Source: Streptomyces sp. NBC_00287 (lineage in GTDB: Bacteria; Actinomycetota; Actinomycetes; Streptomycetales; Streptomycetaceae). From it: DNA of 64,000 bases. The position numbers and the translations under genes were made by a program. The notes under the pieces are model-generated. The model made no database searches. It was not told the DNA's origin and was given only the letters and a program-made list of their open reading frames with translations. Shown here one piece after another: positions 6,529 to 56,646 of the stretch. How positions within the stretch are numbered: position 1 is the stretch's first letter; each line of letters begins with the position of its first letter. The DNA lies in NCBI RefSeq assembly GCF_036173105.1, contig NZ_CP108053.1:8990001-9054000 (forward strand). The letters are read 5' to 3'.

Positions 6529-9500
6529 TCAACCTCGTTCGGTACGGATGGGGCGGACGTTCCTTGCCTGCGGTCCCCTTTCGCTTTGGACGACGCGGAA
6601 TCGGACCCGTTGTCCTTCGTCGAGTGAGCGGAAGCCCTCTAGGTCGATCGCGCTGTGGTGGACGAAGACGTCCCGGCCGTTGTCCAGGGTGATGAAGCCG
6701 TATCCCTTCGCTGTGTTGAACCACTTCACCGTGCCTTCCTGCTGGTAGGCCGGATTTCGGAGGACGAGCTCGGGGGAATCGGGGTCGTAGTGGTTGAAGA
6801 GCGAGACGTTACCCGTGTCCCTGCGACGGCGGATCCTGCCGGCGATGTCGGCCAGGCTCAGGAACTCCGGGCCGCCCGGGAGACCCGAGATAAGCACCGA
6901 AACGAGTTCCTTCGTGAAGGCGTGGGGAGCCTTTCCCGCCTGCCGTTGTGAGGTCAACAGCGTCCAGCTTCCCCGCGGTGTGATGCGCGGTGCGAAGAGC
7001 GACCAGATCCTGTCCATGTGTTCGGCGTCGGCGTCGAGGACAAGGACTTTGAACCGGGCCGGACTTTCGTCCAGCAGCGAACGAAGGTGCCGGATGGAGA
7101 GAGCGGACGTGAGCGGGCGGTCGCGACTGGTGTCGGAGAAGGTGAGGAAGGCGTCCTCGGCTGTCTCGATCAGGTGGCCCGCGTAATAGAGGAAGAGCGT
7201 GTGCTCGGCCTGCCCGGCCACGTCTGACAGTGCCCGGTCGAAGGTCTCGCGGAATGGGCGGTTCCATACGACCGAGACGTTACCGGCAGCGAAGATGCCG
7301 TCCTCTCGTCTGCGTCCCAACGCGTACGCCAGCTCGTGCGCCGCCTCGGCGGCACCGGGCAGCTCCGGGAACTCCTGGTAGCTGTCGACTCCGATGAGCA
7401 CGGCACGGGAGTGGGTGGGGTCGAGGAGGGCGGGGTTCGGTGACTGTGCAGGCACGGGCGTGGAGATCGGCGTGGGGGCTGTGATCCGCGTGGCGAGGAG
7501 CCGGTTGCTCTGCTCGGTGTATGCATTCACCACCCCGACCAAGGTCCCGTGCAGGTCGACAACGGCCGCACCGACTGTGGGCCATGGCGCGGAGACGGTG
7601 GGCTCGAGCACGTAGTGGTCGCTCGCGCCGGTCTGGACCCGGCAGCGGAGCAGCGCCAAGGTGGAATCACCGTCATTGTCGAGACCGACGACCATGACCC
7701 GTTCCCCGCGGGGTGGCACGGGGGCTTGCGCCAGAGGCGGCACCTTCGCCTGCCACTGGAACCCTGAGGGCGTCACAAGGGACAGATGGGCCTGGCCGTC
7801 CCGAGCGGCCGACGGGAATTGTCGCGCAAGCAGGGCGCTTTCCCTGTCCCAGAGGCGCAACTGCACACGCAGCTCCATGTCGGGCTGCTCCCGATGTGCG
7901 CGCAGGTACGGAACCTCCGGTATCACCACAACGCCTTGATCGGAAAGGAGGATTCCCGAACTCAGCACGTTCCTCCCGTTCCAGACCCGAACCAATCGTC
8001 GCGCGGCATCCTTGATCAGTTGTCCGATGACTGCCGAGGATTCTGCGGTGGCCTCCAGGAACGCGAAGTTGTTGTCGAGGTATCGGGCCACTTCGTCCAG
8101 CCCTCTGGCCCGTGCGGACTCGGCGAGAGCCGGCAGTGAATCCGGGTCGGCGTGACGGGCCAGTACCGACCAGAGGGCCTCGGGCGGGTCGATGCGCGGA
8201 GTCTGCTGTCGGTCAGCCCATTCCACGGACTCACGGATCAGATAGCTCTCGGGCCGGTCGGGCATCTGGATCATAATCGGCGGTGCCCCGGAAGCCGAGT
8301 CGCAGGCATAGGCCAAGGCGGCCGAAAGCCCGTCGTACGACTGGTCCCCATGGTTCTCGTCGTTGAGGTAGACGCCCGTGGCCTCTTCCAACAACTGTCG
8401 TGACAGCACAGGTCCATGCCCCAGACGCTGGATGTCCAGCGCCGCCCGGAGCAGGCTCTTGGCGAACGATGGCGCCTCGTGAAGGCGCCTCATCATGGCA
8501 TCGACCTCTGCGACCCCGGGAGAGAACGGCACGACATCGATGCGACCGAGCAGGAAGCGGAAGCTGTTTGCTTCCTCGGACTCCTCGGTCAGCAGTAAGG
8601 CCATGTCCGCGGGGGTGAGTTCGCCGACGACCACAACAGGTCCGTCCGCCGGTTCGGCGAGCCCACGGAGAAGGAGGGGATGGGTATCGGAAGCGAGTGC
8701 GAAGGGCAGGAATTCGCGCAGCACCACGACGGAACGAGGACGACGCAACTGGGCTGCCTCTCGGACCAGTTCGTCGGGATCCGTTGGCGACCAGACCGTC
8801 CAGTCGCCCGGCAACCCAGCAATCGCCCGCGTGATGGCCGTCGTCTTCCCGGTACCGGCTTCGCCCAACACCAGTACACATGCACTGCGCCCCTGCTGGG
8901 CCCGTGAGATCACTTCGCGTAGATGTTCATCCGCCTCGCCCTCCACATAGGCGGACATGGGCTCGTCTTCCGTGACGAGTTCCGCAATCCGCTGTGGCCC
9001 CGTTGCGACCCCCGTCCCAACCCGAGCCGCAAAGGGCGAAGCCTGCGCAGCGAGCCCCCGGCTGCCGTCCCCACCCCCCGCACTGCGCCCCGCAAGAAAG
9101 TCCCCGCCGCTACTGGCCCCCCGCTCGCTGACCCCTGCCCCCATCTCCCGCCGCACCACCTCCTGCACGGAAGTGATCGCGTCCCGCCGCTGCCCCCCGA
9201 GCAGTGCCTCCCGTACCCCGGGCCGGAAGTCGAACGGCACCCTGTCCGGGTCCGCCGCGCTCTCCCCCTCCCATGGCGTGAAGAGGCCGCCCAGCGCAAC
9301 CTCCGCCAGATGCCCGTGCTCCGACTCGGGAAGCATGATCTGGCGGACGAGGTTCATCACCGGCAGACTCAGCGGTACGGCGGACAGGTACCCGGCGAGC
9401 CGTTGGGCGACCGGCGACGCGCCCGCTCTGAACCGCCGTAGGATCTCGTCGACTTCGTCGGCCACCGGCTCCCGCGCAGCGACCGGCAGCACCTGCGCCG

Positions 9501-10544
9501 CACGCGGAATCGTCAGGCACGGCACCCGCGTCCACTGCCCGTTTCCCGCCACCAGCTTCGCCAGGACTGCGACGGACGCGGCTCCGGCCTCCACCACGGG
9601 GATCGTGATGCCTCCCGGCGCCGAACGGCGTCGGCGGCTCCGCGTGGCGGGGCCCAGCCGCCAGGAGGTGTTGGGCGAGGCGGGTCCGACCGAGCGGACC
9701 AGTACCGGCTGCGGGCGTACCGCGCCCCGGTCCCACAACCGGCGTGGCAGCACATTCAGCAGTGCCACCGGACCGTGGGCGGACCACTGCCGCAGCATGT
9801 GCGCGACGGAGGGCGCGGCCCAGCCGCCCGCCACCGTGTCGGTCACCACCAGGACCAGCCGATGGCCCGACGGGTCGGACACCTCCTGCACGCTACGCGG
9901 CTCGCCGTCCGGGGTACGGGCGACGGACAGCTCCGCGCCCGCGTCCGTCCCCCGCAGGTACCACGTCCGCACATCGCGGAAGATGCCCGTCTGTACGAAC
10001 ACGCGCCGCAGTTCACCCACCAGGTCATGCCACAGCACCATCGAATGGTGGGCGTCCACGACGAGCGCGAGGTCCAGCCAGCGGCCCCGGCGCGGGCGCA
10101 ACACGGGGGTCGGCAGGCGCTGTTCCACCGTCCGGCGGACCGTGAGCTCCTCGTCGAGCTCCAGTTCGACATCGCGGGACCGCATCCGCCTCGTGCTCCG
10201 GCCCAGAGGCCGCAACGCCCGCATCAGAGCCAGCGGATCCCGTAGTGATGCGGCGCGGCGCACGCGGACGAGGTCGACGCCGTCCCGGGCCTGACCAGGT
10301 GTGTCCGTGACATCGCAAGCGTTGTAGAACTCCTCGGCCGGCCCGGACTCCACCTCGCCAGGGCCCGCCGCAGGGGGCTCGGGCGGCGGCGGCTCCTCGG
10401 CCTCGACGCCCATGTCCGGCAGATCGCGTACGGCGGGCTCCTCGGAGCCGCCACCGATCCGCGCGGCCAGCCAGAGGATGTCCGCCACCTCCTCGGGCCC
10501 CGCATTCACGCCGGACGCCTCCAGAGCGCGGAACAGCTCCTCGA

Positions 10545-10548
<4 letters not shown>
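6529..10548 (-). CDS. SAV_2336-type conflict-system protein: vWA-like region, P-loop ATPase, pseudo-trypsin, pseudo-caspase and cold-shock domain
   Basis: This 1339-residue protein is the last gene of locus A. Residues 1-31 ([26 protein letters not shown]) and about 95-460 match the SAV_2336-type region, including a vWA-like strand [11 protein letters not shown] with a non-canonical metal site. Residues 555-730 form a P-loop NTPase with Walker [10 protein letters not shown] at 562-570 and a strand RSVVVLREF. Residues about 850-1020 resemble a trypsin-fold domain, but the His, Asp and Ser positions read VVVIPEV, TLALLRC and [10 protein letters not shown], so it should be inactive. Residues about 1047-1260 resemble a caspase: YYAGH keeps His1125, but the Cys position reads LDAD (Asp1174). 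Residues 1271-1335 are a cold-shock domain with KGYGFI and VFVHH intact. The ATG at 10548 overlaps the MoxR stop (ATGA). Confidence 0.85.
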
Positions 10549-11615
<1,067 letters not shown>

Positions 11616-11641
11616 TCAACTCCCCTTCTCCGGCGACTGAT

Positions 11642-13573
11642 TCACGAGGACAGCGACCGCCTTCCCGGAATCCGCCCGGGGTCGTCCCAGAGCAGGGCGA
11701 GCGGGCGATGTCTGGCACGGGCGCGTCTGAGCACGGCGGGCAGGGCCTCCACGTCGAGCACGGCGGGCGGCGTAGCCCCCAGCGCCGTACGAAGGGATTC
11801 GTCCGTGCCGGGGGAGGGGCGGCGCCAGACGGCGATCGGTATTCCGCCGTCGAGTACGGCCTCCAGCGCGTCCATGACCAGCGGCTCCGTCACGTCGGCC
11901 AGGACGCAGACGGGTGGCTCTTCCAGTTGCAGGACGTCGGCCAGGCCGTCCGACACATCGGCGTCCCCGACGTCGTGCACGGCCTCCGGATGTCGGCCGC
12001 CATGGGTCTCGTACCACTGCCATTTGGTCCGCCACGGAGCTTCGGCGAGGCCCTGACGTTCCTCAGGGCAGCGCAGGACGACCTGGTACCGGCCGCCGAG
12101 CGCGCAGGTCTTGTTGCCGCGTCCTGTGGACACCTGCCATGTCTCGAACGGCTCCTCCAGCAGGTCGTACGGGACATGGAATTCGATCCGCCCGAGGTTG
12201 CGCGCGGAGGCGTTGGCCAAGAGGTGGGCGCCCAGGGTCGTGCGAACGGCGTCCAGGTCCATGGGCCGGTCGTAGTCGCCCACGTTCTCGAAGTCGCCCT
12301 GGTACGACCATAGTTGAAGCCAGAAGAGGTCGTCCCCTTCGGGTGTGAGCCGGACGTGCAGTGCAGGGGGCTCGGTGGCCCGCGCGGGAGGGACGGGGAC
12401 GGGATCGGCGCCGAGTCGTTCGCGGGTGCGCTCCACCCAGGCGTTCGCGGCGGCGGCCCAGTCGGCGAAGGGGGAGCGGGAGGCCAGGTGCCGCATGAAC
12501 GGCAGCGCGAGCGGGACTGCTCGGCTCGTTCCCTGGCGGCTGTCGAGGTCGCGGACGATCTCCGTCAGGTGCGGGGAGGGCAGTGAGTGCTCGGCGGGGG
12601 CGGCACAGCCCGCCACCTCGAAGGCCCAGCGGTAGGCCTCGTACGTGTACGGGGGCACCTTGCGGTCGGTCAGCAAGTTCCCGAGTTCCGTCCAGGCGGG
12701 CTGGTCGAGGACGGGCGCGCCGGTCGGTGCGGAGGTGGTGCCGTCGTCCGTCCAGTGGTCTCCGTAGAGAGACGATCCGTCCCAGGCCCTGGCGACCTCG
12801 AACTGCGGCTCCTGCCAGGCCGTCTCGTGCGCCTTCATGACAGCGAAGTCCGCCTGGACGTCCCGGGCGATGTCGACCAGGCCCAGGGTCGCCTGCTCCA
12901 GCGTCCGGCCCTCCAAGCGCTTGAGCAGGGTGTCCGTGAACTGGCCCGCCTCCAGCTCCGCCCGGTTCCGCGCCGTCTCGCCGGGGCGTGCCGCGTAGAG
13001 CGTGAACTGCCGACGGTCGGGGACGGGCTGACCAGCCGGGTAGTCGACCCTGACGAACCCCAGACGGCCGTACCGCCTCTCGTCGATCCGGCAGGAGTCG
13101 CCGATGGTGACGAGACGCCGGAAACGCCCGCGGCTCACCTTGTCCGACCGCCACCAGCGCAGCGCCGAGGTGAGGTTGAGGTGGGTGGTGTGACCGGCCG
13201 TGGCGTCGGCGTAGGGGAGGAGCAGCTGGTGGGTGGGGTCGAGGAAGCCGTGCCCCGCCCAGTAGAGCCACAACAAGTCGCCGTCGCAGCAGGGGAGTTC
13301 CTTGAAGAGCGCTTCGTCGACGTTCTCGCGCGTGGCCGGCTTCGCTTCCACGCCGGCCTCGTTGCGGGTCAGGGGCGACAGCAGCAGACATAAGTTGCTC
13401 TTGGGGACACCGGCGGTGCCGGTGAGCCAGTCGGCGAAACGTACGGCGTCGCGGGCCGGCCCGGACAGGTTCATGCGGGGCCGGTCGATCTCGTAGGACT
13501 CGATGCCCACGACGAGTGCGAAGGTCCGTTCGGGCGCGATCAGCAACTCGGGGACGGCGGACAGGCCCGTCAC
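11642..13573 (-). CDS. Caspase-like protease fused to VMAP-C domain (conflict locus A effector)
   Basis: This 643-residue protein starts with a caspase-like peptidase domain (residues about 15-290). TFALVVGIESYE is the first strand, LYWAGHGF carries catalytic His108 and VTIGDSCRID carries catalytic Cys161, so the dyad is intact. The middle (about 290-400) holds a helical segment (YTYEAYRWAFEVAGC, LTEIVRDLDSRQG) seen in both loci. The C-terminal region from about 410 matches the VMAP-C pattern (LWSYQGDFENVG, GRIEFHVPYDLLEEPFE, CVLADVTEPLVMDALEAVL, PIAVWRRP). The GTG at 13573 overlaps the upstream hydrolase stop (GTGA), and the gene is 26 bases before the MoxR gene. In this system type the N-terminal domain is the effector; cleavage of host proteins leading to dormancy or death is inferred from family knowledge. 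Confidence 0.88.
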   Translation of the reverse strand: MTGLSAVPELLIAPERTFALVVGIESYEIDRPRMNLSGPARDAVRFADWLTGTAGVPKSNLCLLLSPLTRNEAGVEAKPATRENVDEALFKELPCCDGDLLWLYWAGHGFLDPTHQLLLPYADATAGHTTHLNLTSALRWWRSDKVSRGRFRRLVTIGDSCRIDERRYGRLGFVRVDYPAGQPVPDRRQFTLYAARPGETARNRAELEAGQFTDTLLKRLEGRTLEQATLGLVDIARDVQADFAVMKAHETAWQEPQFEVARAWDGSSLYGDHWTDDGTTSAPTGAPVLDQPAWTELGNLLTDRKVPPYTYEAYRWAFEVAGCAAPAEHSLPSPHLTEIVRDLDSRQGTSRAVPLALPFMRHLASRSPFADWAAAANAWVERTRERLGADPVPVPPARATEPPALHVRLTPEGDDLFWLQLWSYQGDFENVGDYDRPMDLDAVRTTLGAHLLANASARNLGRIEFHVPYDLLEEPFETWQVSTGRGNKTCALGGRYQVVLRCPEERQGLAEAPWRTKWQWYETHGGRHPEAVHDVGDADVSDGLADVLQLEEPPVCVLADVTEPLVMDALEAVLDGGIPIAVWRRPSPGTDESLRTALGATPPAVLDVEALPAVLRRARARHRPLALLWDDPGRIPGRRSLSS

Positions 13574-14778
13574 CGCAGCGCCTCCGCGATCCGGTCGAAC
13601 ACCGGGTCGAGCCTCCAGTAGGCGCTGTGGGAGACGGGGAAGGGCTGGCGGCTGCGCACCTCGTGGTCGGTGACCCGGCCATCGCCCGCGAAGACCGGTT
13701 CGGCGAGGTAGGCGAGCAGGTCCTTGCGGTCGTAGATGTTGAGCCAGTCGGGGAAACCGGAGGGCAGGGCCGCGCCGGGACGGAGGCCGGCGAGCGCGCC
13801 GAGTTCGTGGAGGAAGGGGGCCTGCGAGCCGACGGTGACCAAGAGCCGTACGGGCAAGGGCGGTTGACGTACGGCGGCCAGGGCGAGGGTGTCCACCAGG
13901 GCGATGCCGCCGAGGCTGTGCCCGATGACGACCGGCGGCTCGGGGCTGTGGCCGATGACCTTCTCCAGGTGGGCGCGCAGCGGCTCGCCGCGTGACTGGT
14001 AGCGCAGGATGTCGCCGACTTCCGAGGCCTTGTCGTGGGTGAAGTCCCCGCGCCAGCGGTCGCGTGCGGTCTGTGTGGTCATCCGCTGTGCCAGCTTGAA
14101 CAGCACCCCCAGCGTCCCCGTCACGACACCGCGGCCCGTGCCGCCGAGCCGGTCGCTGAGCACGTCCACGATCCGGTCCCGCTCGTCACCGGTGCACAGC
14201 GTGGTGTCCCGGGCTTCGGAGAGCAGGACGGCGACCACGGCACGGCTGGTGAGCAGGACGAGCTCGGCCGCGATCGCGTCGTCCTCGGCGGCGAGACACG
14301 CATCGTGGAACTCCTCGGAGTCCGCTACGGCGTCCAGGGCATACCGATAGCCTTCGACGAGCCCGGTCTCCCGGAGCAGTACGGCCAGTTCGTCGCCCGG
14401 ATCGAGGACGCGAGGCAGTCCACGCAGATAGTCCCCCACCACCTCCCCGGGGGACTGCACCCCCGGCAGTCCGAACCCGCCGTCATCGGCCCCGGTACCG
14501 ATCTCGGCGAGCACCCGCAGCTCGCAGAACGGATCGGTCAGGAGCAGCAGCCACTCGGCGGTCTCGGGGTCGTCGTCGAGGTCCGTCGCCACGAGTGGTC
14601 GCATCCCCGGCACGGAGGCGCCACCGGCACTGAGCGTCGCGCCGAACTCGTCACCCCAGTAGCACGGTTCGACCTCCGCTCCCGGGAACCGCTTCAACAA
14701 CCCCGCGCCCACCAGCCGGAACAGCTCATCGAACCGCTCACGACGGACACCGGTCCCATGAACAAAGACGAACCTCAT
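13570..14778 (-). CDS. Alpha/beta-hydrolase (lipase/esterase-like), first gene of conflict locus A
   Basis: This 402-residue protein begins FVFVHGTGVRRERFDELF, the oxyanion HG motif of alpha/beta hydrolases. It has the nucleophile elbow VVIGHSLGGIAL near residue 305 and a late region LLVTVGSQAPFL typical of class 3 lipase-like or PGAP1-like enzymes. The ATG at 14778 is preferred over the open frame upstream because the HG strand follows it directly and GGGGGA precedes it. It overlaps the caspase/VMAP-C gene by 4 bases, so it is probably the leader gene of a four-gene operon. A phospholipid or ester-hydrolysing effector or auxiliary role in the conflict system is inference from position. Confidence 0.82.
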   Translation of the reverse strand: MRFVFVHGTGVRRERFDELFRLVGAGLLKRFPGAEVEPCYWGDEFGATLSAGGASVPGMRPLVATDLDDDPETAEWLLLLTDPFCELRVLAEIGTGADDGGFGLPGVQSPGEVVGDYLRGLPRVLDPGDELAVLLRETGLVEGYRYALDAVADSEEFHDACLAAEDDAIAAELVLLTSRAVVAVLLSEARDTTLCTGDERDRIVDVLSDRLGGTGRGVVTGTLGVLFKLAQRMTTQTARDRWRGDFTHDKASEVGDILRYQSRGEPLRAHLEKVIGHSPEPPVVIGHSLGGIALVDTLALAAVRQPPLPVRLLVTVGSQAPFLHELGALAGLRPGAALPSGFPDWLNIYDRKDLLAYLAEPVFAGDGRVTDHEVRSRQPFPVSHSAYWRLDPVFDRIAEALR

Positions 14779-14911
14779 GCGTCCCCCGACCCCAACGTGC
14801 TTGTGCGGTAGGAGAATAGTCCGTCGGCATGCCACGGGGAGGTTCTGGGGCAATGTTCCTTCGGGTGTGATGGATCGCCGGTTAAGGGCTCACATGGCGC
14901 CCGTATGCTCG

Positions 14912-46019: not shown

Positions 46020-46514
46020 ATGCTCCTTCGCATCGACGCCGACGACCTGCCCGGCCTGACCTGCCTCACCGCCGAGGGCGAGGACCCGGGCTACCGCAAC
46101 GTCCACGTCGCCGTACAACGCCGCGACCGCCCGGCCGAACTCCTCGACCTCCAACCGGGCGATGCGCCGCACGCGACCTGGACCCTGGAGTGCACCACGA
46201 CCGCATCGGCCACCGGCATCGACGTGCGGGGCCCGTACGTGCAGGGCCGCCCGGGCGAGCGGTTCATCTACCTGTCCTGGGGCACCGTCGACGAATCCGG
46301 CACCTTCACCATGTTCCGCCGCGCCAAGCTCATGCTCGACGCCGTCCCCACCGACATCCTCGACACCGCGGCCCGCGACGGCCTGTTGGTCGGCCACCTG
46401 GGCCTGACCGACGCATGCGGCATGCCGCTGTGCGCGCGGGTCGTACCGCCGCGAATCACCTGGACCGCGGAACGCATTCCCGTTCGCCCGGGACAGGCAG
46501 GCAGGGTTTCTTGA
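46020..46514 (+). CDS. DUF5990 family protein
   Basis: This 164-residue protein starts LLRIDADDLPGLTCLTAEGEDPGYRNVHVAVQRRDRPAELLDLQPGDA, the usual DUF5990 opening, with SCWGTV-like LSWGTVDESGTFTMFRRAKLML. The fold is probably beta-rich and the role is unknown. Its TGA overlaps the TTG start of the GntR gene (TTGA at 46511). Confidence 0.78.
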   Translation: MLLRIDADDLPGLTCLTAEGEDPGYRNVHVAVQRRDRPAELLDLQPGDAPHATWTLECTTTASATGIDVRGPYVQGRPGERFIYLSWGTVDESGTFTMFRRAKLMLDAVPTDILDTAARDGLLVGHLGLTDACGMPLCARVVPPRITWTAERIPVRPGQAGRVS

Positions 46515-47665
46515 ACGAGGACGATCGGGGGGAGAGCGCAGGCTCCGTATACGACCGCGTTGAGCGGGCGCTCGTGAGCGAGATCGAGGCTGGGACTTAC
46601 CCCCTCGGCGCGATGCTTCCTCCCCAACGTGAAATGGCCGACCGTTTTGGCGTGTCCCGCGACACGGTGCAGCGTGTGCTGAAGTCGCTGCAGGACCAGG
46701 GATACATCGAGTCACGGCAGGGCAGCGGAAGCCGCGTAGTCCGGACACCGAGCGGACGCGGAATTCCAACGAGGACGGCGCGCGTTGCCCCCCACTTACG
46801 AGAGGAGACCAGCCGCGGGGAGAACTCAGGCTCCGTACACGATCGCGTCGAGCGGGCGCTGTTGAGTGAGATCGAGGCTGGGACTTACCCCCTCGGTACG
46901 AGGCTTCCAACCCAACGTGACGTCGCCCGGCGTTTTGAGGTGTCTCGCGACACGGTGCAGGGCGTGTTCAGGTCGCTGCGGGACCAGGGGTACATCGAGT
47001 CACGGCAGGGCAGCGGAAGCCGCGTTGTCCGGACGCCGAGCGGACGCGGAAGCCGGGCGAGGACGGACCAAGGTCCTGTGCGCCTTGACTCCCATATAGA
47101 CGAGGCCTTCAGGTCCCGGGACGTCACCATCGATGCCTTCACATTGACGGGTGAGTCGCTGGACCTGCACATGCGTTTGTGTGCCGAGAAGATGCGGGCC
47201 GGGGAACTCAGGCCCGAGTCGATTCGTGTGCGACTGCTGCAGCCCCGGACCGACGGCGACTTCAAACTGGCCACGCCGGTGGGTGATCCCGAAGACCGAC
47301 GGGCACTTGAGCGTCTCCGAACTCTGCGGTTTTCGTTCACGGCCTCGATCAGCGGCGTGCTCCGAGAGCTTCAGGCCGTGGGGCAGGTGGCGAGCGTCAG
47401 CTTCGAGCACAGGGAGACTCCGATGGCTCCCATGCAGAAGCTGTACCTGTTCAACGGCACCGAGGTCCTCGCCGGCTACTACACCGTCCTACGGCGCCCG
47501 GTACACCTCGAGGCGGAGGAACAGATCGAGATATACGACGTCCTCGGACTCGGCGCGGCCCTCTACCACCACTCCGCGACCGGCGCGCCCCCGGATCCGG
47601 AGAGCACCGCCATCGTGAACAGGGCCAGGCGATGGTACGAGCACATGTGGGCGAACGCGGAGTAG
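46511..47665 (+). CDS. GntR-type regulator with duplicated winged helix and a C-terminal sensor domain
   Basis: This 384-residue protein starts at TTG 46511, overlapping the DUF5990 stop (TTGA). Residues 8-84 and 104-180 are two nearly identical GntR winged helices (VERALVSEIEAGTYPLGAMLP and VERALLSEIEAGTYPLGTRLP, then SRDTVQ...DQGYIESRQGSGSRVVRTP). Residues about 195-384 form another domain: DVTIDAFTL, ESIRVRLLQP, SVSFEHRETPMAP, LYLFNGTEVLAGYY and a final RRWYEHMW. The C-terminal domain is similar in order and wording to the C-terminus of the SAV_2336 protein at 49869-51962. The start is supported by the lack of a better codon and by the continuous HTH. It precedes the caspase gene by 173 bases and probably controls locus B. 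Confidence 0.8.
   Translation: MNEDDRGESAGSVYDRVERALVSEIEAGTYPLGAMLPPQREMADRFGVSRDTVQRVLKSLQDQGYIESRQGSGSRVVRTPSGRGIPTRTARVAPHLREETSRGENSGSVHDRVERALLSEIEAGTYPLGTRLPTQRDVARRFEVSRDTVQGVFRSLRDQGYIESRQGSGSRVVRTPSGRGSRARTDQGPVRLDSHIDEAFRSRDVTIDAFTLTGESLDLHMRLCAEKMRAGELRPESIRVRLLQPRTDGDFKLATPVGDPEDRRALERLRTLRFSFTASISGVLRELQAVGQVASVSFEHRETPMAPMQKLYLFNGTEVLAGYYTVLRRPVHLEAEEQIEIYDVLGLGAALYHHSATGAPPDPESTAIVNRARRWYEHMWANAE
46532..47050 (+). repeat. Tandem duplication of the GntR winged-helix coding segment
   Basis: The segment 46532-46762 recurs at 46820-47050 with a constant 288-base (96-codon) offset. Runs identical for 29 and 35 bases occur, for instance around ggctgggacttacc and gagtcacggcagggcag. 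This is a recent-looking in-frame duplication, not two genes. Confidence 0.9.
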
Positions 47666-47838
47666 TACTCGGCACCGGACTGACCCAAGAGCGAATTCCC
47701 GCTGCTCACCCCGCGCTATGGTCGTATCCGGCAAAGGGAAGGGCCAAGGGGGCGAGAGGGTTTGCGGGTCCTTTGTATGCACGGCACGGGCGTCGGAAAG
47801 TTCCCCGCGGCCCGCCGGTCAGGGTCAGAGGCGGCCGG

Positions 47839-49872
47839 GTGACCCCTCAGCCCGACGACCTGCCCGACATCGCAGCCCAGCGAACGTACGCCCTTGTGGT
47901 CGGGGTGGAGTCCTACGACGTCAGCAGCGGCTGGCGGCTACCGGGAGCGGCCCTCGACGCCCACCACTTCGCCCGCTGGCTCACCGGTTCCGGCCAGGTG
48001 CCGCCCGCCAACGTGCGTCTGTTCCTCTCCCCGTTGCCCTCGACCACCGTCCCCTGCGTGGACGACTTTCCGGAGCATCTGCCGGCGACCGAGGCGAACA
48101 TCAAACAGGCCCTCCTGCATGAACTCCCGTCCTGTGACGGCGACCTGCTGTGGATCTACTGGGCCGGACACGGCTTCGTCGACGACCACGGAGACGCGCT
48201 GCTGCCCTACTCCAACGCCGCCGCCCCCAGCATCAGCAATCTCAACCTGGGCTCGGCCCTGCGCTTGTGGAAGTCCACCTCCGTGGCGCATGGACGCTTC
48301 CGGCACCAGGTCGCCGTCGTCGACGCCTGCCGCGTGGACCGTCGGCGCACCCCCAAACTGCACTTCGAGGCACACGAATACGGCAAGGGGGCCATGACCG
48401 ACGAGCGCCGTCAGTTCGTTCTCTACGCGGCACCGCCAGGAGGGGCGGCCCGGAACGAGGCGGGTCGGCAGTCGGGCCTTTTCACCAGGTCGCTGCTGCA
48501 CAGGCTCGATGGTTTGAGCGTCGGGCAGGGCACGCACCGCCTGACGGCCATCGCGCATGGAGTCCAGGCCGACTTCGATGAACTCCGCCAGGCGAAAGGG
48601 GGCATCTGGCAGACACCGACCTTCGAGATCCACCGCGGATGGAACGGCTCAGCGATCTTCGGCGACGCCTGGACCGCATCCGCCCCCAGCGGCGCCCCGC
48701 AACTGGACCAGGAGGCCTGGAACCGACTCGCCGCCCTGACCAAGGGCCGTGGTCTGCCGCCGTACGCCCACGACGCCTACCGCTGGGCCTTCGACGTCTG
48801 CGAGTGCGCTGCCCCACTGGCCGGCAGCCCGCCCATGGTCGGGCTCACGGAGATCGTCCGCGATCTCGACGCGCGGCAGGGGCGGCCCGGCATCCCGCTC
48901 ACCCTGCCGTTCGTCCGTTACCTGGCCGCTCACGCCCAGGACCGGGAGTGGGGCGCAAGGCTGGACGCCTGGGTGGAAGACACCCGCGCCCGGATCGGCG
49001 CCGGGCCGGTACCACCCGCACCGGAACCCCCGACGGAGCCTGCCGCACTCCACGTCCAACTCGCCAAGGACCACAGGCAGGATGACGCGTACACGGTGCG
49101 TATATGGCGGTACGAGGGCCGATTCACCTCGGAGTGGGAGTCCGAGGCCTCCCTCAAACTGTCGGAGGCACGCAGCGAGGTCGGCGGGCGCATCGCGGCC
49201 CTCATCGAGGAGTTCGACGACAGGGACCCGCAGGGAATCGCCCCGGGCGTCGGACGCATCGAGGTGCATATCCCTCGCAAGCTGATCGACGAGGAGTTCG
49301 AAGGCTGGGCGGTCCCCGCCGGGCCGGAGGGCACGTTCGAGCCCATGGGGGTCCTTTTCGAAGTCGTGGTGCGCTGCCCCGACGAGAGAAGGGGAGCCGC
49401 ACGTCAGAAGTGGCGGCAGAAATGGGAGTCGTTCGAACGCCACGGCAAAGGCCGGTGGGAGGCGCCCACGCTCGATGCCCGCCACCCGATCTGGCTCCTC
49501 GCCGAAGACCAGGCGCCGGGCATCCTCTCCAGGCTCCTGCAAGCCGGGGAGCTACCGGTGTGCGTCCTGGTCCCCGGTGACCGTGCACTGCTGAGTGACG
49601 CACTGGACGCCGCGCACATGTCCGGGGTCCCGATCGTGGTGTGGCGGCGGGGCGCACCGCTGAACGGCTCCGCAGGCGATCTACCCTCCGCGCTGACCGC
49701 GTCCGGCGACGAGATCGACCTGCGGAACCTGCCGAGCCGGCTGCGCAGACGGCGTATCGAAGCCAGTGTCGCTCTGTCGTCGGAGCAGGCGGACCAGGGC
49801 GACAGCCACCCCTTCGCACTCCTGTGGGACGATCCGAACCGGAGACCCGACCCCAGGGCACTGAGACCGTGA
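47839..49872 (+). CDS. Caspase-like protease fused to VMAP-C domain (conflict locus B effector)
   Basis: This 677-residue protein is a paralogue of the caspase at 11642-13573. Residues 15-290 are the caspase-like domain: TYALVVGVESYD, IYWAGHGF with His111 and VAVVDACRVDRRR with Cys164, so the dyad is intact. The helical middle has YAHDAYRWAFDVCEC and LTEIVRDLDARQG. The C-terminal region from about residue 400 is VMAP-C-like (ALHVQLAKDH, RIEVHIPRKLIDEEFEGW, PVCVLVPGDRALLSDALDAA, PIVVWRRG). The GTG at 47839 follows the weak RBS AGAGG. It overlaps the SAV_2336 gene by GTGA at 49869. It lacks an accompanying MoxR. Confidence 0.88.
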   Translation: MTPQPDDLPDIAAQRTYALVVGVESYDVSSGWRLPGAALDAHHFARWLTGSGQVPPANVRLFLSPLPSTTVPCVDDFPEHLPATEANIKQALLHELPSCDGDLLWIYWAGHGFVDDHGDALLPYSNAAAPSISNLNLGSALRLWKSTSVAHGRFRHQVAVVDACRVDRRRTPKLHFEAHEYGKGAMTDERRQFVLYAAPPGGAARNEAGRQSGLFTRSLLHRLDGLSVGQGTHRLTAIAHGVQADFDELRQAKGGIWQTPTFEIHRGWNGSAIFGDAWTASAPSGAPQLDQEAWNRLAALTKGRGLPPYAHDAYRWAFDVCECAAPLAGSPPMVGLTEIVRDLDARQGRPGIPLTLPFVRYLAAHAQDREWGARLDAWVEDTRARIGAGPVPPAPEPPTEPAALHVQLAKDHRQDDAYTVRIWRYEGRFTSEWESEASLKLSEARSEVGGRIAALIEEFDDRDPQGIAPGVGRIEVHIPRKLIDEEFEGWAVPAGPEGTFEPMGVLFEVVVRCPDERRGAARQKWRQKWESFERHGKGRWEAPTLDARHPIWLLAEDQAPGILSRLLQAGELPVCVLVPGDRALLSDALDAAHMSGVPIVVWRRGAPLNGSAGDLPSALTASGDEIDLRNLPSRLRRRRIEASVALSSEQADQGDSHPFALLWDDPNRRPDPRALRP

Positions 49873-51962
49873 TCGACAGGCTGCACCAGATTCTCGCGGG
49901 CGCCGGCGTGGAGACGGGGCCTGAGGAACTCGCCGACATCCTGTGGCTGGCCCGCTGCATGGCAGCCCCTCACCAGGCCCCGGTGGCGGACCATCACCCC
50001 AGCCCAACCGGTCGGCCGGGCCGTGCCAAGGGCCCCGAACCCGCCGTACGGCAATCTCCCGCCCCTGGGCCGCCCCGGCCCAAGTCCCGCCGTACGGGCC
50101 CGAAGAGGGGCGACGCCCTGTTCGCCGCCACCGAGCCGCCACGGAAGCCGTCCACCGAGCCCCGGCCCCCGGGCGGTCCCGAAGCCTCGCAGGAGCGAAG
50201 TCGACAGTACGGCGTACCGGTGCGCGTCAGCCGGGCAGCGTCCCTGGACGACCCCCTCGCCGTCATGCGTGCGCTGCGCCCCCTGGGCCGCCGCCGTATC
50301 GCGGGCAACCGCATGGAACTGGACGAGGAGCTGACCGTCGAGGCCGGCATCGACCATCACATGCTGCTGCCGGTCCTACGCCCGATCCGGGACCGATGGC
50401 TCGACCTGACCCTCGTCGTGGACACCCACCGCTCGATGCTGCTCTGGCACGACCTGCTCGCGGAAATCCACACGCTCCTCACCCAGACCGGTCTCTTCCG
50501 CACCCTGCGGATATGGTTCCTGCGCGCCACCGACAGCGCGCGACCGGGCGAGCGCATCACCGTGTCCGCCACCCCCGACGGCCAGCCACGCAGCCCCCGG
50601 GAAGTCACCACCGGCCGGCAGCACGGCCTGATCCTGCTGGTGAGCGACACGGTCTCCGACGTATGGCACCGGCCCGAACTTCGCGAGACGGTCGGACAGT
50701 GGTGCACACACAACGCGGTGGCGCTGCTCAACGTTCTGCCCGAACGCCTTTGGGCCCGCGGTGCCGTCCACCCGGCCCCCTGCCTGATACGCGCCACCGG
50801 ACCCGCCACCCCCAACATCTCCTGGAGCCTCGCCGCACCGCCCGATGACCCCGCGAGCGGCCAACCCCGTCCGCAGGCCGTGCTGCCGGTGGTCGACGCG
50901 TCCCCGCAGATGCTGTCCGTGCTCGCCTCGCTGGTCTCCGGTAGCGGCCGCCGGCACAGCCTGCCCTGCCTTCCGCTGGACGCCGACTGGTCCAAGGGCG
51001 AGTTCCCCGGCGAGCCGCAGCTCGGGCCGGGCGACGACGGGCCGACCGACGCCGGCGACACGGACCGGGCCGCGCTGCGCGCGGTGCGCTGGTTCGAGGA
51101 GAGCGCCTCGCCCGCCGCCAGAGAACTCGCGGGATACCTCTCGGCCGTTCCCCTCACCCTCCCCGTGATGAATCTCGTACGTCGCGTCATGCTCCCCGAT
51201 TCGGACCACGGGCATCTCGCCGAAGTGGCGTTGGGCGGACTCCTGGAGCCCTGGGAGGAGTACCACCGGGCCGACCCGACGTATCTGGAGTTCCGATTCC
51301 TCCCCGGTGTCCGCGACGCGCTCATCGGCGGCCGGCTCCGGCAGCAGATCGCCACCGTGCGCGAACTCGTACGCCAAGAGGTCACCGCCTACCTGGACGA
51401 GCGCCGCACCACCGACGACTTCCCGGCGCTCCGGCACACCACCGCCGAGACCGCCACCCGCATCATCGCCCCCGACGCGGTCCCTTTCGCCCGTACGACG
51501 GCTCCCGGGGCCCCGGCCGTCTCCGACCTGCTCCTGGACGGCATCGCTCGCGCCTTCGAGGAACCCGAGGTCAGCATCGACGCTGTCGTCGGCAGTGCCA
51601 TAGCGCTGCTCGCGGCGGTCCTGCCGCAGGTGCGCCGCATCACCGAAGGGCAGGTGCTGCCCGCGTCGATCCGCGTGCGCCTGCTTTCCCTGGGCGGCGA
51701 GGGGGACAGCGGCGACATCGAGGCACTGCGCCACCTGCTGGAAGATGTGCGGAGCTCACCCATCGAGGTGACCTTCGAGGCGAGGGCCTCCGCGTCGCAG
51801 CCCCCCACCGAGCTCTACCTGATCAATTCGCGCACCGTGCTGACGTCGTACTTCCACCTGCCCGGGGAGAGCGCGCAGGAACTGCACGCGCAGCCCGAGG
51901 AGCGGCTGGAGGAGACCCTGGAGTGGTTCAACTCCTGGTGGGAGCTGCTCGGGGAGCGCTAG
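49869..51962 (+). CDS. SAV_2336-type protein with GntR-shared C-terminal domain (conflict locus B)
   Basis: This 697-residue protein starts at GTG 49869, overlapping the caspase stop. Residues 1-30 (IDRLHQILAGAGVETGPEELADILWLA) and 110-500 align with the N-terminal half of the locus A protein, including [40 protein letters not shown] and [35 protein letters not shown]. The following AAA, protease, caspase and cold-shock regions of the locus A protein are missing. In their place residues about 557-697 carry VSIDAVV, ASIRVRLLS, IEVTFEARASASQPP, LYLINSRTVLTSYF and EWFNSWWE, matching the GntR regulator's C-terminus. Confidence 0.85.
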   Translation: MIDRLHQILAGAGVETGPEELADILWLARCMAAPHQAPVADHHPSPTGRPGRAKGPEPAVRQSPAPGPPRPKSRRTGPKRGDALFAATEPPRKPSTEPRPPGGPEASQERSRQYGVPVRVSRAASLDDPLAVMRALRPLGRRRIAGNRMELDEELTVEAGIDHHMLLPVLRPIRDRWLDLTLVVDTHRSMLLWHDLLAEIHTLLTQTGLFRTLRIWFLRATDSARPGERITVSATPDGQPRSPREVTTGRQHGLILLVSDTVSDVWHRPELRETVGQWCTHNAVALLNVLPERLWARGAVHPAPCLIRATGPATPNISWSLAAPPDDPASGQPRPQAVLPVVDASPQMLSVLASLVSGSGRRHSLPCLPLDADWSKGEFPGEPQLGPGDDGPTDAGDTDRAALRAVRWFEESASPAARELAGYLSAVPLTLPVMNLVRRVMLPDSDHGHLAEVALGGLLEPWEEYHRADPTYLEFRFLPGVRDALIGGRLRQQIATVRELVRQEVTAYLDERRTTDDFPALRHTTAETATRIIAPDAVPFARTTAPGAPAVSDLLLDGIARAFEEPEVSIDAVVGSAIALLAAVLPQVRRITEGQVLPASIRVRLLSLGGEGDSGDIEALRHLLEDVRSSPIEVTFEARASASQPPTELYLINSRTVLTSYFHLPGESAQELHAQPEERLEETLEWFNSWWELLGER

Positions 51963-54464: not shown

Positions 54465-56174
54465 CTACGTCGCAGAGTTACGACGGACCCCGCGGCGGTC
54501 GGAACCGCGGCCGCCGCTGGCACCAGCGCCGCCCGTGGCTCCGCCGGCCGTCGCGCGTCGGGCGGTTCCGCGGACAGCCTTGCCGGAGGCAGCGCTGGTC
54601 CCTGTACCGGCTGCGGCCCGGCGGTCGGTGCTACGGCCGCCCGCGGCGCCGGCAGCAGTCGTAGCACCCGCTGCTCCGGTCCGGCGGGCAGTACCGCGCC
54701 CCCCGGTCGTGGAGGTCCCAGCAGCCGCGGGGGTTCGGCGGTCGGAGCCGCGGCCCCCGGTTGCGCTCGTAGTACCCGTCGCCGCTCCGGCCCGGCCACC
54801 GTTGCGGCGGCGGCCCTTGCCGGCCTCGGCGCCGGACTTCCGGCCCGGGCGGGACGCCGTCGGTTGCGTCGGCTGGGGGACCTCGATGATGACGGGCACG
54901 CCGGAGGGCTCGCGGGCGCCGGTGATGGTGGTCAGTTCCGCGTCGCTCGACGTGATGCGGGCCGTCCGGGGACGGATTCCCGCGTGCGACATGAGCTGGG
55001 TGACATCCCGCTTCTGGTCGGGCAGGACCAGCGTGACCACGCTGCCGGAGCCGCCGGCGCGGGCCGTGCGGCCGCCCCGGTGGAGGTAGTCCTTGTGGTC
55101 GGTGGGGGGATCGACGTTCACGACGAGGTCGAGGTCGTCGACGTGTATACCCCGGGCCGCGACGTTCGTCGCGACCAGCGCGGTGACCTGGCCGGTCTTG
55201 AACTGTTCCAGCGTGCGGTTGCGCTGCGGCTGGGAGCGGCCGCCGTGCAGGGCCGCCGCGCGCACACCGACGGCCAGGAGCCGCTTGGCGAGCCGGTCGG
55301 CGGACCTCTTGGTGTCCAGGAAGAGGATGACCCGGCCGTCACGGGCCGCGATACGCGTGGTGACGGCCTTCTTGTCGGTCTCGTCCAGGACATGGAGCAC
55401 GTGGTGCTCCATCGTGGACACCGCCCCCGCGGACGGGTCCACGGAGTGCACCACGGGGTCGGTCAGGAACCGCTGCACCAGGCGGTCGATGTTGCGGTCC
55501 AGAGTGGCCGAGAACAGCATCCGCTGTCCGTCGGACCGCACCTGCTGGATCACCTTGGTGATCTGCGGCAGGAAGCCCATGTCCGTCATCTGGTCGGCTT
55601 CGTCCAGCACCGTGATGCGCACGTTGCCGAGCACGCAGTCCCCGCGCTCCACAAGGTCGTTGAGCCGGCCCGGAGTCGCCACGAGGACCTCGGCGCCGCG
55701 CCGGAGCACAGCGGCCTGCTTGGTGATGGACAGCCCGCCCACCACGGTGGCCATCCGGAGGTTCACGGCCGTCGCGTAAGGCGTCAGCGCGTCCGTCACC
55801 TGCTGGGCGAGTTCACGGGTGGGCACCAGTACGAGCGCGAGGGGCGCCTTGGGCTCCGCGCGCTGTCCGGCCGTACGGGCCAGGAGCGCGAGCCCGAAGG
55901 CGAGGGTCTTGCCGGAGCCGGTGCGGCCCCGTCCCAGCAGGTCACGGCCGGCGAGCGAGTTCGGCAGCGTGGCGGCCTGGATGGGGAAGGGGGTGGTGAC
56001 GCCTTGCGCGGTGAGGGTCTTCAGCAGCCCCGCGGGCATGTCCATACCGGCGAAGTCCTCGACGGCGGGAAGTGCGGGTGTCGTGCTTTCCGGCAGCCGG
56101 AATTCCCTGGGCGACGACACGGAGGGTGAGGGGGACGAGGCGCGCCGGTTCGACTTCTGGGGCCTACGGGTCAT
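54465..56174 (-). CDS. DEAD-box RNA helicase
   Basis: This 569-residue helicase has Q-motif FPIQAATLP, motif I GRTGSGKT, Ia PTRELAQQ, Ib TPGRL, II DEADQ (a DEAD variant with Gln), III SAT and VI HRGGRTARAGG. The C-terminus from about residue 450 is low-complexity and rich in Gly, Thr, Ala and Arg with repeats such as GGRGSDRR, GGRGTARR and GGRSTDRR, similar to RGG-type RNA-binding tails. The ATG at 56174 is chosen over a longer frame. It lies downstream of the cold-shock gene on the same strand behind a strong terminator hairpin, and both would act on cold-structured RNA. Confidence 0.9.
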   Translation of the reverse strand: MTRRPQKSNRRASSPSPSVSSPREFRLPESTTPALPAVEDFAGMDMPAGLLKTLTAQGVTTPFPIQAATLPNSLAGRDLLGRGRTGSGKTLAFGLALLARTAGQRAEPKAPLALVLVPTRELAQQVTDALTPYATAVNLRMATVVGGLSITKQAAVLRRGAEVLVATPGRLNDLVERGDCVLGNVRITVLDEADQMTDMGFLPQITKVIQQVRSDGQRMLFSATLDRNIDRLVQRFLTDPVVHSVDPSAGAVSTMEHHVLHVLDETDKKAVTTRIAARDGRVILFLDTKRSADRLAKRLLAVGVRAAALHGGRSQPQRNRTLEQFKTGQVTALVATNVAARGIHVDDLDLVVNVDPPTDHKDYLHRGGRTARAGGSGSVVTLVLPDQKRDVTQLMSHAGIRPRTARITSSDAELTTITGAREPSGVPVIIEVPQPTQPTASRPGRKSGAEAGKGRRRNGGRAGAATGTTSATGGRGSDRRTPAAAGTSTTGGRGTARRTGAAGATTAAGAAGGRSTDRRAAAGTGTSAASGKAVRGTARRATAGGATGGAGASGGRGSDRRGVRRNSAT

Positions 56175-56206
56175 GCAGTGATTTGCCTTCCTGGAAACAG
56201 CACAAA

Positions 56207-56238
56207 CCGGGGTCCGCACCATGCGGTGCGGACCCCGG
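56207..56238 (-). terminator. Terminator hairpin after the cold-shock gene
   Basis: CCGGGGTCCGCACC at 56207-56220 pairs perfectly over 14 bases with 56225-56238 around a four-base loop. It lies 24 bases beyond the stop of the cold-shock gene. Confidence 0.85.
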
Positions 56239-56262: not shown

Positions 56263-56466
56263 TTAGGCGGGGACGATGTTCTCCGCCTGCGGGCCCTTCT
56301 GGCCCTGCGTCACGTCGAAGGAAACGCGCTGGCCTTCCTGAAGCTCACGGAAGCCCTGCGTCGCGATGTTCGAGTAGTGGGCGAAGACGTCGGGGCCGCC
56401 GCCGTCCTGCTCAATGAAGCCGAAACCCTTTTCGGCGTTGAACCACTTCACGGTTCCCTGTGCCAT
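56263..56466 (-). CDS. Cold-shock protein (CspA family)
   Basis: This 67-residue protein is a free-standing cold-shock domain: [33 protein letters not shown] with RNP1 KGFGFI and RNP2 VFAHY. GGAG ends 5 bases before the ATG. The 180 bases upstream of the ATG hold no gene and may be a regulatory leader. It is the single-domain counterpart of the domain at the end of the locus A protein, and the DEAD helicase follows it. Confidence 0.93.
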
Positions 56467-56646
56467 GACGTTCTCCTTCTGGTAGGCAGAGGCCCCATCC
56501 GGAGATGCCGGTAAAAACAAAATATGCGCCCGATGGAACATTCCCGTCAGGCGCACATAGGTTCATGGGTACCACAACTGCAACACGAAAACCGTAGCAC
56601 AGATCGGCGGCCGATGTCGATCACTGAGGCGGGCCTCACCGCCGGA

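What the first reader, a model, noticed from the sequence alone, without database searches (positions are those of the whole stretch)
6529..14778. Four-gene vWA-MoxR-VMAP-like operon with a 1339-aa multidomain last gene
The hydrolase, caspase plus VMAP-C, MoxR and SAV_2336-type genes are joined by 4-base overlaps or a 26-base gap. The set matches the ternary conflict systems described by Kaur, Burroughs, Iyer and Aravind. The last gene combines at least five domains in one chain, an architecture I have not seen described.
Basis: partly seen in the sequence, partly recalled or inferred. Interest (0 to 1): 0.85.

Follow-up and report, generated by a model that had tools for sequence, protein, structure and literature searches.

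The report
Streptomyces caspase-type VMAP ternary conflict operon
This is a four-gene bacterial system of a family predicted to guard against invaders; here the family's long variable protein ends in two worn-out protease domains and an intact cold-shock (RNA- or single-stranded-DNA-binding) domain, which makes it a useful case for finding out whether that variable end is the sensor or the weapon.

Summary
Window 6529-14778 (minus strand) is an intact operon: alpha/beta-hydrolase, caspase+VMAP-C, MoxR ATPase, 1339-aa SAV_2336/vWA protein. It meets the tested definitions of a caspase/hydrolase-type VMAP ternary system (Kaur et al. 2020), with two vWA rows inconclusive. Among 25 genus loci, the hydrolase is beside the VMAP in 23 and MoxR in 23.

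The long chain is vWA, STAND-like NTPase, HtrA/trypsin fold, caspase fold, cold-shock domain. Four other Streptomyces share this tail (one copy frameshifted). In the four tails aligned none keeps a full trypsin triad or the caspase cysteine; cold-shock motifs are intact. The VMAP caspase dyad and hydrolase triad are intact wherever readable. So catalysis sits upstream and the tail looks like a sensing or decoy module, favouring the sensor-tail model (Doré et al. 2024); relatives with Mrr nuclease tails argue against generalising.

Trypsin and caspase folds in one tail depart from a published mutual exclusivity. A second VMAP locus 33 kb away lacks hydrolase and MoxR. Function is untested.

The parts
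13570..14778 (-). alpha/beta-hydrolase, 402 aa, first gene
   Evidence: PF12697 E 1.6e-4 (below cut-off); GHSLGG nucleophile S288, D350, D353 and H384 invariant in 11 of 11 aligned and in 37 of 37 readable of 41 loci, duplicates included
11642..13573 (-). VMAP: N-terminal caspase (residues ~16-270), middle region, VMAP-C (415-632); 643 aa
   Evidence: PF20028 E 6.1e-36; PADLOC caspase E 6.3e-18; H108 and C161 in 38 of 38 readable of 41 loci, duplicates included
11678..12331 (-). VMAP-C domain
   Evidence: PF20028 residues 415-632
10545..11615 (-). MoxR-type AAA+ ATPase, 356 aa
   Evidence: PF07728 AAA_5 E 5.2e-6, above cut-off; Walker A/B residues and the W..G and WR residues of the N-terminal motifs in 37 of 37 readable of 41 loci
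6529..10548 (-). vWA component with multidomain tail, 1339 aa, last gene
9124..10548 (-). SAV_2336 / vWA module with flanking helices (residues 1-475)
   Evidence: NF041121 E 1.1e-112; D165, S169 and D237 invariant in 12 aligned; D165 and D237 at the ends of predicted strands 1 and 4
8044..8943 (-). STAND/AAA-like NTPase region (residues 536-835)
   Evidence: AAA_16 2.7e-6 and nSTAND_NTPase5 3.6e-5, both below cut-off; Walker A kept in 3 of 4 aligned, lost in G404
7465..8034 (-). HtrA/trypsin-fold domain without a complete triad (residues 839-1028)
   Evidence: Foldseek HtrA1 E 6.5e-8; AlgW Z 16.2, 2.8 A over 165 residues, model 336-525; Trypsin_2 0.045 here, 1.9e-4, 8.2e-5 and 1.3e-4 in relatives; His/Asp/Ser pattern not complete in 4 of 4 aligned, one keeps the Ser
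6754..7431 (-). caspase-fold domain, Cys lost (residues 1040-1265)
   Evidence: NF047832 E 3.3e-31, 108.4 bits, below its 140-bit cut-off; MALT1 Z 18.3 over 194 residues; Cys position substituted in 4 of 4 aligned and in L081
6550..6741 (-). cold-shock domain with intact RNP1/RNP2 (residues 1270-1333)
   Evidence: PF00313 E 9.9e-26; motifs kept in 5 of 5 carriers
14779..14826 (-). conserved 5' block with a -10-like CTATTCT (CTATCCT in G404) starting 41-43 bases before the hydrolase ATG in the five carriers; putative operon promoter
   Evidence: alignment of 5 operons; positions; promoter role inferred
47839..49872 (+). second, paralogous caspase+VMAP-C gene (related locus, not part of the operon; start codon chosen by me)
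   Evidence: PF20028 hit G000:9039084-9039836; 47% identical to the first VMAP
49869..51962 (+). second vWA component, directly after the second VMAP with no MoxR between
47762..47841 (+). remnant of the start of a hydrolase gene (LRVLCMHGTGV...) in front of the second VMAP
   Evidence: alignment with the intact gene of S. africanus, L088

Best explanation
The operon is a caspase/hydrolase-type VMAP ternary conflict system. Most likely mechanism: the 1339-aa vWA protein is held with MoxR and VMAP in an off complex. Its tail carries no intact protease (dead trypsin fold, dead caspase fold, an NTPase whose Walker A is kept in most carriers) but an intact cold-shock domain, and acts as the ligand-binding input: RNA or single-stranded DNA through the cold-shock domain, or invader proteins through the dead protease folds. 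Ligand engagement lets MoxR use ATP to remodel the vWA-VMAP complex, which switches on the VMAP caspase. That caspase, together with or by processing the co-encoded hydrolase, kills or arrests the infected hyphal compartment. Shown here: gene set, order, domains, dead and intact active-site residues, conservation. Inferred: the complex, the ligand, the direction of the signal, cell death, and the anti-invader role. My confidence in class membership alone is about 0.95; the figure below is for the whole mechanism.
For: Membership: VMAP-C, AAA and SAV_2336 profiles; hydrolase>VMAP>MoxR>vWA in the 11 loci L080-L090 and hydrolase and MoxR each in 23 of 25 genus loci. Catalysis upstream: caspase H108/C161 in 38 of 38 readable, hydrolase S/D/D/H in 37 of 37 readable of 41 loci, duplicates included. 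Tail without protease catalysis: no complete trypsin triad and no caspase Cys in 4 of 4 aligned, although both folds are still predicted. Cold-shock RNP motifs in 5 of 5 carriers. The tail changes faster than the core: dN/dS window vs S. cupreus 0.61 NTPase, 0.62 trypsin-like, 0.43 caspase-like against 0.13 vWA residues 96-470, 0.14 MoxR, 0.14 hydrolase; VMAP 0.36, vWA N-terminus 0.57. In 16 of 25 caspase-type loci the tail ends in pentapeptide repeats and in 1 it is TPR; Pfam at E<=0.01 named no enzyme there except Trypsin_2 (0.0018) in G153. Doré 2024 proposes tail = sensor and VMAP N-terminus = effector (PMC10907252, passages). vWA-MoxR-VMAP coupled with CARF-type ligand-binding proteins is reported near type III CRISPR loci (PMC10910872, passages).
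Against: Three related caspase-type systems (L085, L086, L090) end in Mrr nuclease domains (E 1.8e-22 to 3.1e-22) with an intact D..QxK motif (motif recalled), so a tail can carry an active effector. L078 and L083 carry TIR domains that may be active. The kept Walker A leaves the NTPase possibly active. The cold-shock domain could itself be the effector. Its dN/dS is 0.57 with a wide interval (0.24-1.63), so it is not shown to be specially constrained. The vWA fold was not recovered significantly. There are no expression, binding or phage data.
Confidence: 0.42

Rival explanations
1. Release model of Kaur et al.: the VMAP senses, MoxR activates the VMAP caspase, and the caspase cuts the vWA protein to free the tail. 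The freed cold-shock domain then binds RNA and blocks phage (or host) gene expression.
For: Published proposal (PMC7159879 sections 9 part 1, 10 and 35 part 1), which lists cold-shock domains among RNA-binding effectors. The one tail module with all of its known binding motifs intact is the cold-shock domain. Related systems carry Mrr nuclease tails with the motif intact.
Against: A cold-shock domain is not a known toxin by itself (recalled), and the own genome holds eight other cold-shock matches. The model does not explain why two dead protease folds are kept with it, nor why a hydrolase is nearly always encoded beside the caspase (23 of 25).
Confidence: 0.28
2. Integrated decoy: the dead trypsin and caspase folds are baits that bind invader protease inhibitors, or partner with the cell's active caspases, and this binding triggers or restrains the system. 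The cold-shock domain anchors the complex to nucleic acid.
For: Both folds are predicted well but lack catalytic residues. The dead caspase matches the EACC1-associated type; four such loci over cut-off lie in the same genome and the three that I could read keep His and Cys. Kaur et al. raise decoys.
Against: Identity to these three caspases is only 25-31%. No partner or inhibitor is known. [quoted passage not shown]
Confidence: 0.15
3. Not immune: a stress or developmental regulator of Streptomyces, in which the cold-shock domain reads RNA state and the caspase/hydrolase pair serves programmed death in the mycelium.
For: Cold-shock domains bind RNA in stress responses (recalled). The family is enriched in multicellular bacteria. 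I recognised no defence gene among the nearest neighbours, judged by eye; they were not searched by profile.
Against: The tail with this make-up is rare (one of 391 other genomes sampled, a lower bound) and tails differ between species, unlike a conserved developmental regulator.
Confidence: 0.12

Closest known systems
VMAP ternary systems, caspase + alpha/beta-hydrolase subtype (Kaur, Burroughs, Iyer, Aravind 2020, PMC7159879)
   Same: Gene set, order VMAP>MoxR>vWA, hydrolase beside caspase-VMAP, MoxR N-terminal motifs, variable tail, tail proteases mostly inactive; cold-shock domains listed among effectors.
   Different: One tail joins trypsin and caspase folds, which the paper reports as mutually exclusive in the effector position. 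Whether this exact chain is in their source data could not be looked up.
DGR-linked VMAP ternary systems (Doré et al. 2024, PMC10907252)
   Same: vWA protein with a ligand-binding tail, MoxR, peptidase-VMAP; proposed tail = sensor (passages).
   Different: There the tail is a hypermutated C-type lectin; here it is dead proteases plus a cold-shock domain. I did not look for a diversity-generating retroelement.
EACC1 caspase systems (Kaur 2020, System 4)
   Same: The tail caspase matches the EACC1-associated caspase model (NF047832, below its cut-off).
   Different: Here it lacks the catalytic Cys, sits inside a vWA protein, and none of the four operon proteins matches EACC1.
CoCoNuT type IV restriction systems (PMC11090510)
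   Same: Cold-shock OB domains fused to NTPase defence proteins, predicted RNA binding (passages).
   Different: McrBC-type GTPase systems with nucleases; not a vWA-MoxR-VMAP operon.
Canu and protease-activated nuclease systems (PMC12799240)
   Same: A caspase acts on a co-encoded second enzyme (passages).
   Different: The partner there is an MBL-fold nuclease; here an alpha/beta-hydrolase with no shown processing.

Membership tests
VMAP ternary system | VMAP-C domain protein | tested here: met
   PF20028 E 6.1e-36, profile 1-226 of 226; the family rings in 0 of 14 control genomes
VMAP ternary system | Gene order VMAP > MoxR > vWA | tested here: met
   MoxR beside the VMAP in 23 of 25 genus loci
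VMAP ternary system | MoxR AAA+ with N-terminal WxhapG and PsWRxa motifs | tested here: met
   AAA_5 above cut-off; WWIYRG and PPWREF in the window protein; W, G, W and R in 37 of 37 readable of 41 loci; motifs as given in the paper
VMAP ternary system | vWA with aspartates at the ends of strands 1 and 4 | tested here: met
   D165 and D237 invariant in 12 of 12, at the ends of predicted strands 160-165 and 231-236, the first and fourth, in a model of low confidence
VMAP ternary system | vWA fold recognised by structure comparison | tested here: inconclusive
   Model pLDDT 57.6; best vWA chain 1shu at rank 15, E 0.55; VIA lists general Rossmann-like and P-loop folds, Z up to 7.8, for residues 150-340 and no vWA chain among the 50 shown; no PDB match by profile
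VMAP ternary system | [D/E]xxx[D/E]xxxa motif in the N-terminal extension of the vWA protein | tested here: inconclusive
   E19xxx[D/E]23 fits, but position 27 is Leu, with Trp at 26
VMAP ternary system, caspase subtype | Neighbouring alpha/beta-hydrolase gene | tested here: met
   Adjacent gene; 23 of 25 genus loci; Abhydrolase_6 below cut-off but Ser/Asp/His invariant
VMAP ternary system | Variable C-terminal domains on the vWA component | tested here: met
VMAP ternary system | Role against invasive elements | not testable with these tools
   A prediction in the source paper; no experiment seen in the listings
EACC1 caspase system | Adjacent EACC1 gene | tested here: not met
   No EACC1 match (PF19953) in the four operon proteins at E up to 1; genes beyond the operon were not scanned
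MADS | MadB-family ATPase over the curated cut-off | tested here: not met
   71.4 bits against 475

The most novel reading that the evidence does not exclude
The system is modular in trans: one full operon supplies MoxR and hydrolase, and a reduced caspase-VMAP + vWA pair 33 kb away, which has lost exactly those two genes, plugs into it as a second sensor/protease head. The dead-protease plus cold-shock tail is an integrated nucleic-acid and decoy sensor, so the direction of signalling in such VMAP systems is tail to caspase, the reverse of the original proposal.
Probability: 0.15. Interest if true: 0.75.

Novelty: new variant of a known kind. Interest (0 to 1): 0.46.

Why it matters
VMAP ternary systems are widespread in multicellular bacteria and are compared in print with apoptosis machinery, yet I saw no experiment on one in the searches made, and two opposite directions of signalling are in print. 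A version whose tail has no intact protease but a well-understood nucleic-acid-binding domain, with an intact caspase and hydrolase upstream, lets point mutations ask which end senses and which end acts. The reduced second locus and a split system in another species also make it testable whether the core ATPase is shared.

Tried and rejected
Unique architecture: rejected. The same tail occurs in S. cupreus (L080), Streptomyces sp. CB02366 (L082), Streptomyces sp. DI166 (L081, frameshifted in the draft assembly) and unnamed G404.

Chance or artefact ORF: rejected by conservation of the four genes and most junctions.

Cold-shock domain as the most constrained tail part: not supported; its dN/dS interval is too wide.

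vWA by structure: two structure comparisons gave no significant vWA match, and a profile search of PDB sequences none.

A first tail alignment (A3) put the trypsin regions of two TIR-type systems on the wrong columns; I cut those two rows (L083, L084) to the NTPase part (A4) before folding.

A shared 5' motif as a regulon: 2 matches in the window against 1.55 expected by chance, dropped.

Cold-shock domain tree: the first run used the wrong strand for the genome's own cold-shock proteins and was redone. The effector domains do not form one supported clade there, so no single capture is claimed.

Dropped rows: L092 (caspase match only) was left out of all operon counts; L091 (hydrolase and partial VMAP on a short contig) is counted only. 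L151, one of four EACC1-type caspases, gave no clean frame and was not read.

Limits of the searches: the genome search scored only 2 candidates per genome and 3, so those counts are lower bounds; the contig scan used two short peptide patterns.
Full report
OBSERVATION. Junctions are a 4-base overlap, a 26-base gap and a 4-base overlap. Profile searches support the names: VMAP-C E 6.1e-36, SAV_2336_NTERM E 1.1e-112, AAA_5 5.2e-6. The hydrolase is weak by profile (1.6e-4, below cut-off).

DOMAINS OF THE LAST GENE. Residues 1-475 are the SAV_2336/vWA part. Residues 536-835 are STAND/AAA-like (profiles below cut-off). An AlphaFold model of residues 504-1339 from six sequences had mean pLDDT 74.1. 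Against PDB it matched MALT1 paracaspase (best Foldseek E 3.3e-8), HtrA proteases (6.5e-8) and cold-shock proteins (3.0e-7). VIA-align placed AlgW on model 336-525 (Z 16.2, 2.8 A, 165 residues) and MALT1 on model 537-762 (Z 18.3, 2.7 A, 194 residues), that is protein residues 839-1028 and 1040-1265. The cold-shock domain is at 1271-1333 (E 9.9e-26). So five domains plus helical extensions are supported.

vWA. D165 and D237 are invariant in 12 aligned proteins and sit at the ends of the first and fourth predicted strands. The model was weak (pLDDT 57.6), and neither structure comparisons nor a profile search of PDB picked a vWA chain significantly. The vWA call therefore rests on motif, topology and the named family, not on a fold match.

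CONSERVATION. A scan of genome contigs with an alignment of five caspase-VMAP sequences returned 13 loci. Eleven (L080-L090) hold hydrolase, VMAP, MoxR and vWA in this order; L090 begins inside its hydrolase and its VMAP match lies in two frames. In 392 sampled genomes of the genus, own genome included, 24 have a match to the second VMAP of the window at E<=1e-60, 25 loci in all (3 candidates scored per genome, so a lower bound). Hydrolase is beside the VMAP in 23 of 25 and MoxR in 23 of 25. The exceptions are the window's second locus (lacks both), G012 (no MoxR there) and G082 (no hydrolase; only VMAP residues 289-632 match).

THE TAIL ELSEWHERE. Of 391 other sampled genomes of the genus, one (G404) has the whole tail, 46% identical (2 candidates scored per genome, a lower bound). 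The contig scan adds S. cupreus (L080), Streptomyces sp. CB02366 (L082) and Streptomyces sp. DI166 (L081); the DI166 copy is frameshifted in its draft assembly. Tails of the 25 genus loci: pentapeptide repeats 16 (one with a weak Trypsin_2 match, one with an EACC1 domain), cyclic-nucleotide-binding + CRP helix-turn-helix 2 (one with weak Trypsin_2 and AAA_16 matches), TIR-containing 2, cold-shock type 2 (this one and G404), TPR 1, kinase + DUF742 1, and one without a Pfam match, the window's second locus, whose tail resembles the neighbouring GntR protein. Among the eleven contig loci three end in Mrr nuclease domains.

ACTIVE SITES. In the four tails aligned (window, L080, L082, G404) the trypsin His/Asp/Ser pattern is incomplete in all (one keeps the Ser), the caspase Cys is replaced in all, its His is kept in three, Walker A is kept in three, and the cold-shock RNP1 and RNP2 motifs are intact (catalytic motifs named from recall). 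In DI166 the caspase Cys is also replaced, and its His and Walker A are kept. Upstream the opposite holds. Of 41 loci read, duplicates included (36 distinct VMAP sequences among 39 of them), the VMAP caspase has H108 and C161 in 38 of 38 readable, the hydrolase S288, D350, D353 and H384 in 37 of 37, and MoxR its Walker and N-terminal motif residues in 37 of 37.

RATE. Window against S. cupreus, Nei-Gojobori dN/dS: hydrolase 0.14, MoxR 0.14, vWA residues 96-470 0.13, vWA N-terminus 0.57, VMAP 0.36, linker 0.36, NTPase 0.61, trypsin-like 0.62, caspase-like 0.43, cold-shock 0.57 (interval 0.24-1.63). The tail changes fast, yet the intervals of the NTPase, trypsin-like and caspase-like parts stay below 1. 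This is one pair of species, so weak constraint and diversifying change cannot be told apart.

PROMOTER. In the five cold-shock-type operons a block directly before the hydrolase ATG is conserved, with CTATTCT or CTATCCT starting 41-43 bases upstream. A -10 role is inferred.

MECHANISM. Two published proposals differ in direction. Kaur et al. 2020 (sections 8, 9 part 1, 10, 33 and 35 part 1 read, and passages): the VMAP senses, MoxR switches, the VMAP peptidase frees the tail effectors. Doré et al. 2024 (passages): the vWA tail senses and the VMAP N-terminus is the effector. Here the intact protease and hydrolase sites are in the VMAP and the hydrolase, and the tail has binding modules plus an NTPase that may or may not work, which fits the second better. 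Mrr-tailed relatives with an intact motif fit the first. Both may be true of different systems. Kaur et al. report trypsin and caspase in the effector position as mutually exclusive; this tail and its four relatives depart from that, and L078 (trypsin-like, TIR, caspase, EAD2; trypsin match there only E 0.12) perhaps too.

SECOND LOCUS. At 47839-51962 (plus strand), 33 kb from the operon, lies a second caspase-VMAP followed directly by a vWA protein. S. africanus (L088) has the same arrangement complete: GntR protein, hydrolase, VMAP, MoxR, vWA-GntR-tail. Against it, the window has lost the hydrolase after about its eleventh codon and the whole MoxR. The remaining VMAP keeps its caspase His and Cys. 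Sharing of MoxR in trans is therefore conceivable and untested; decay of the second locus is equally open.

LIMITS. 

Noticed in passing
window 47632-51962 (+): Second, paralogous caspase-VMAP and vWA pair without MoxR or hydrolase; a hydrolase start remnant lies at 47762. It looks like a deletion derivative of a five-gene system still complete in S. africanus (L088).
   Followed up: partly
window 46190-47665 (+): Protein with two GntR helix-turn-helix matches whose C-terminal part resembles the tail of the second vWA protein; in L088 GntR and this tail are fused to the vWA protein.
   Followed up: partly
L118 and L119 (G012, about 8.65 Mb and 7.01 Mb): Split system: hydrolase + caspase-VMAP at one place, MoxR + vWA-pentapeptide protein about 1.6 Mb away.
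   Followed up: partly
L078:4940-9634: vWA protein of 1564 aa with NTPase, trypsin-like (weak), TIR, caspase and EAD2 domains in one chain.
   Followed up: no
G000 whole genome: Five VMAP-C matches over cut-off (two of them in this window), four EACC1-type caspases over cut-off and nine cold-shock matches.
   Followed up: no
L120:379-4458 (G082): vWA protein with pentapeptide repeats and an EACC1 domain at its end, beside a VMAP whose caspase part was not found.
   Followed up: no
L081:13002-16957: Frameshift between the vWA part and the tail in Streptomyces sp. DI166 (draft assembly; real or sequencing error unknown).
   Followed up: no
L090:629-2567: VMAP match in two overlapping pieces in different frames (Streptomyces sp. 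Ncost-T10-10d), so this copy may be frameshifted.
   Followed up: no
window 56269-56487 (-): Stand-alone cold-shock protein gene next to a gene that reads like a DEAD-box helicase (54465-56222).
   Followed up: no
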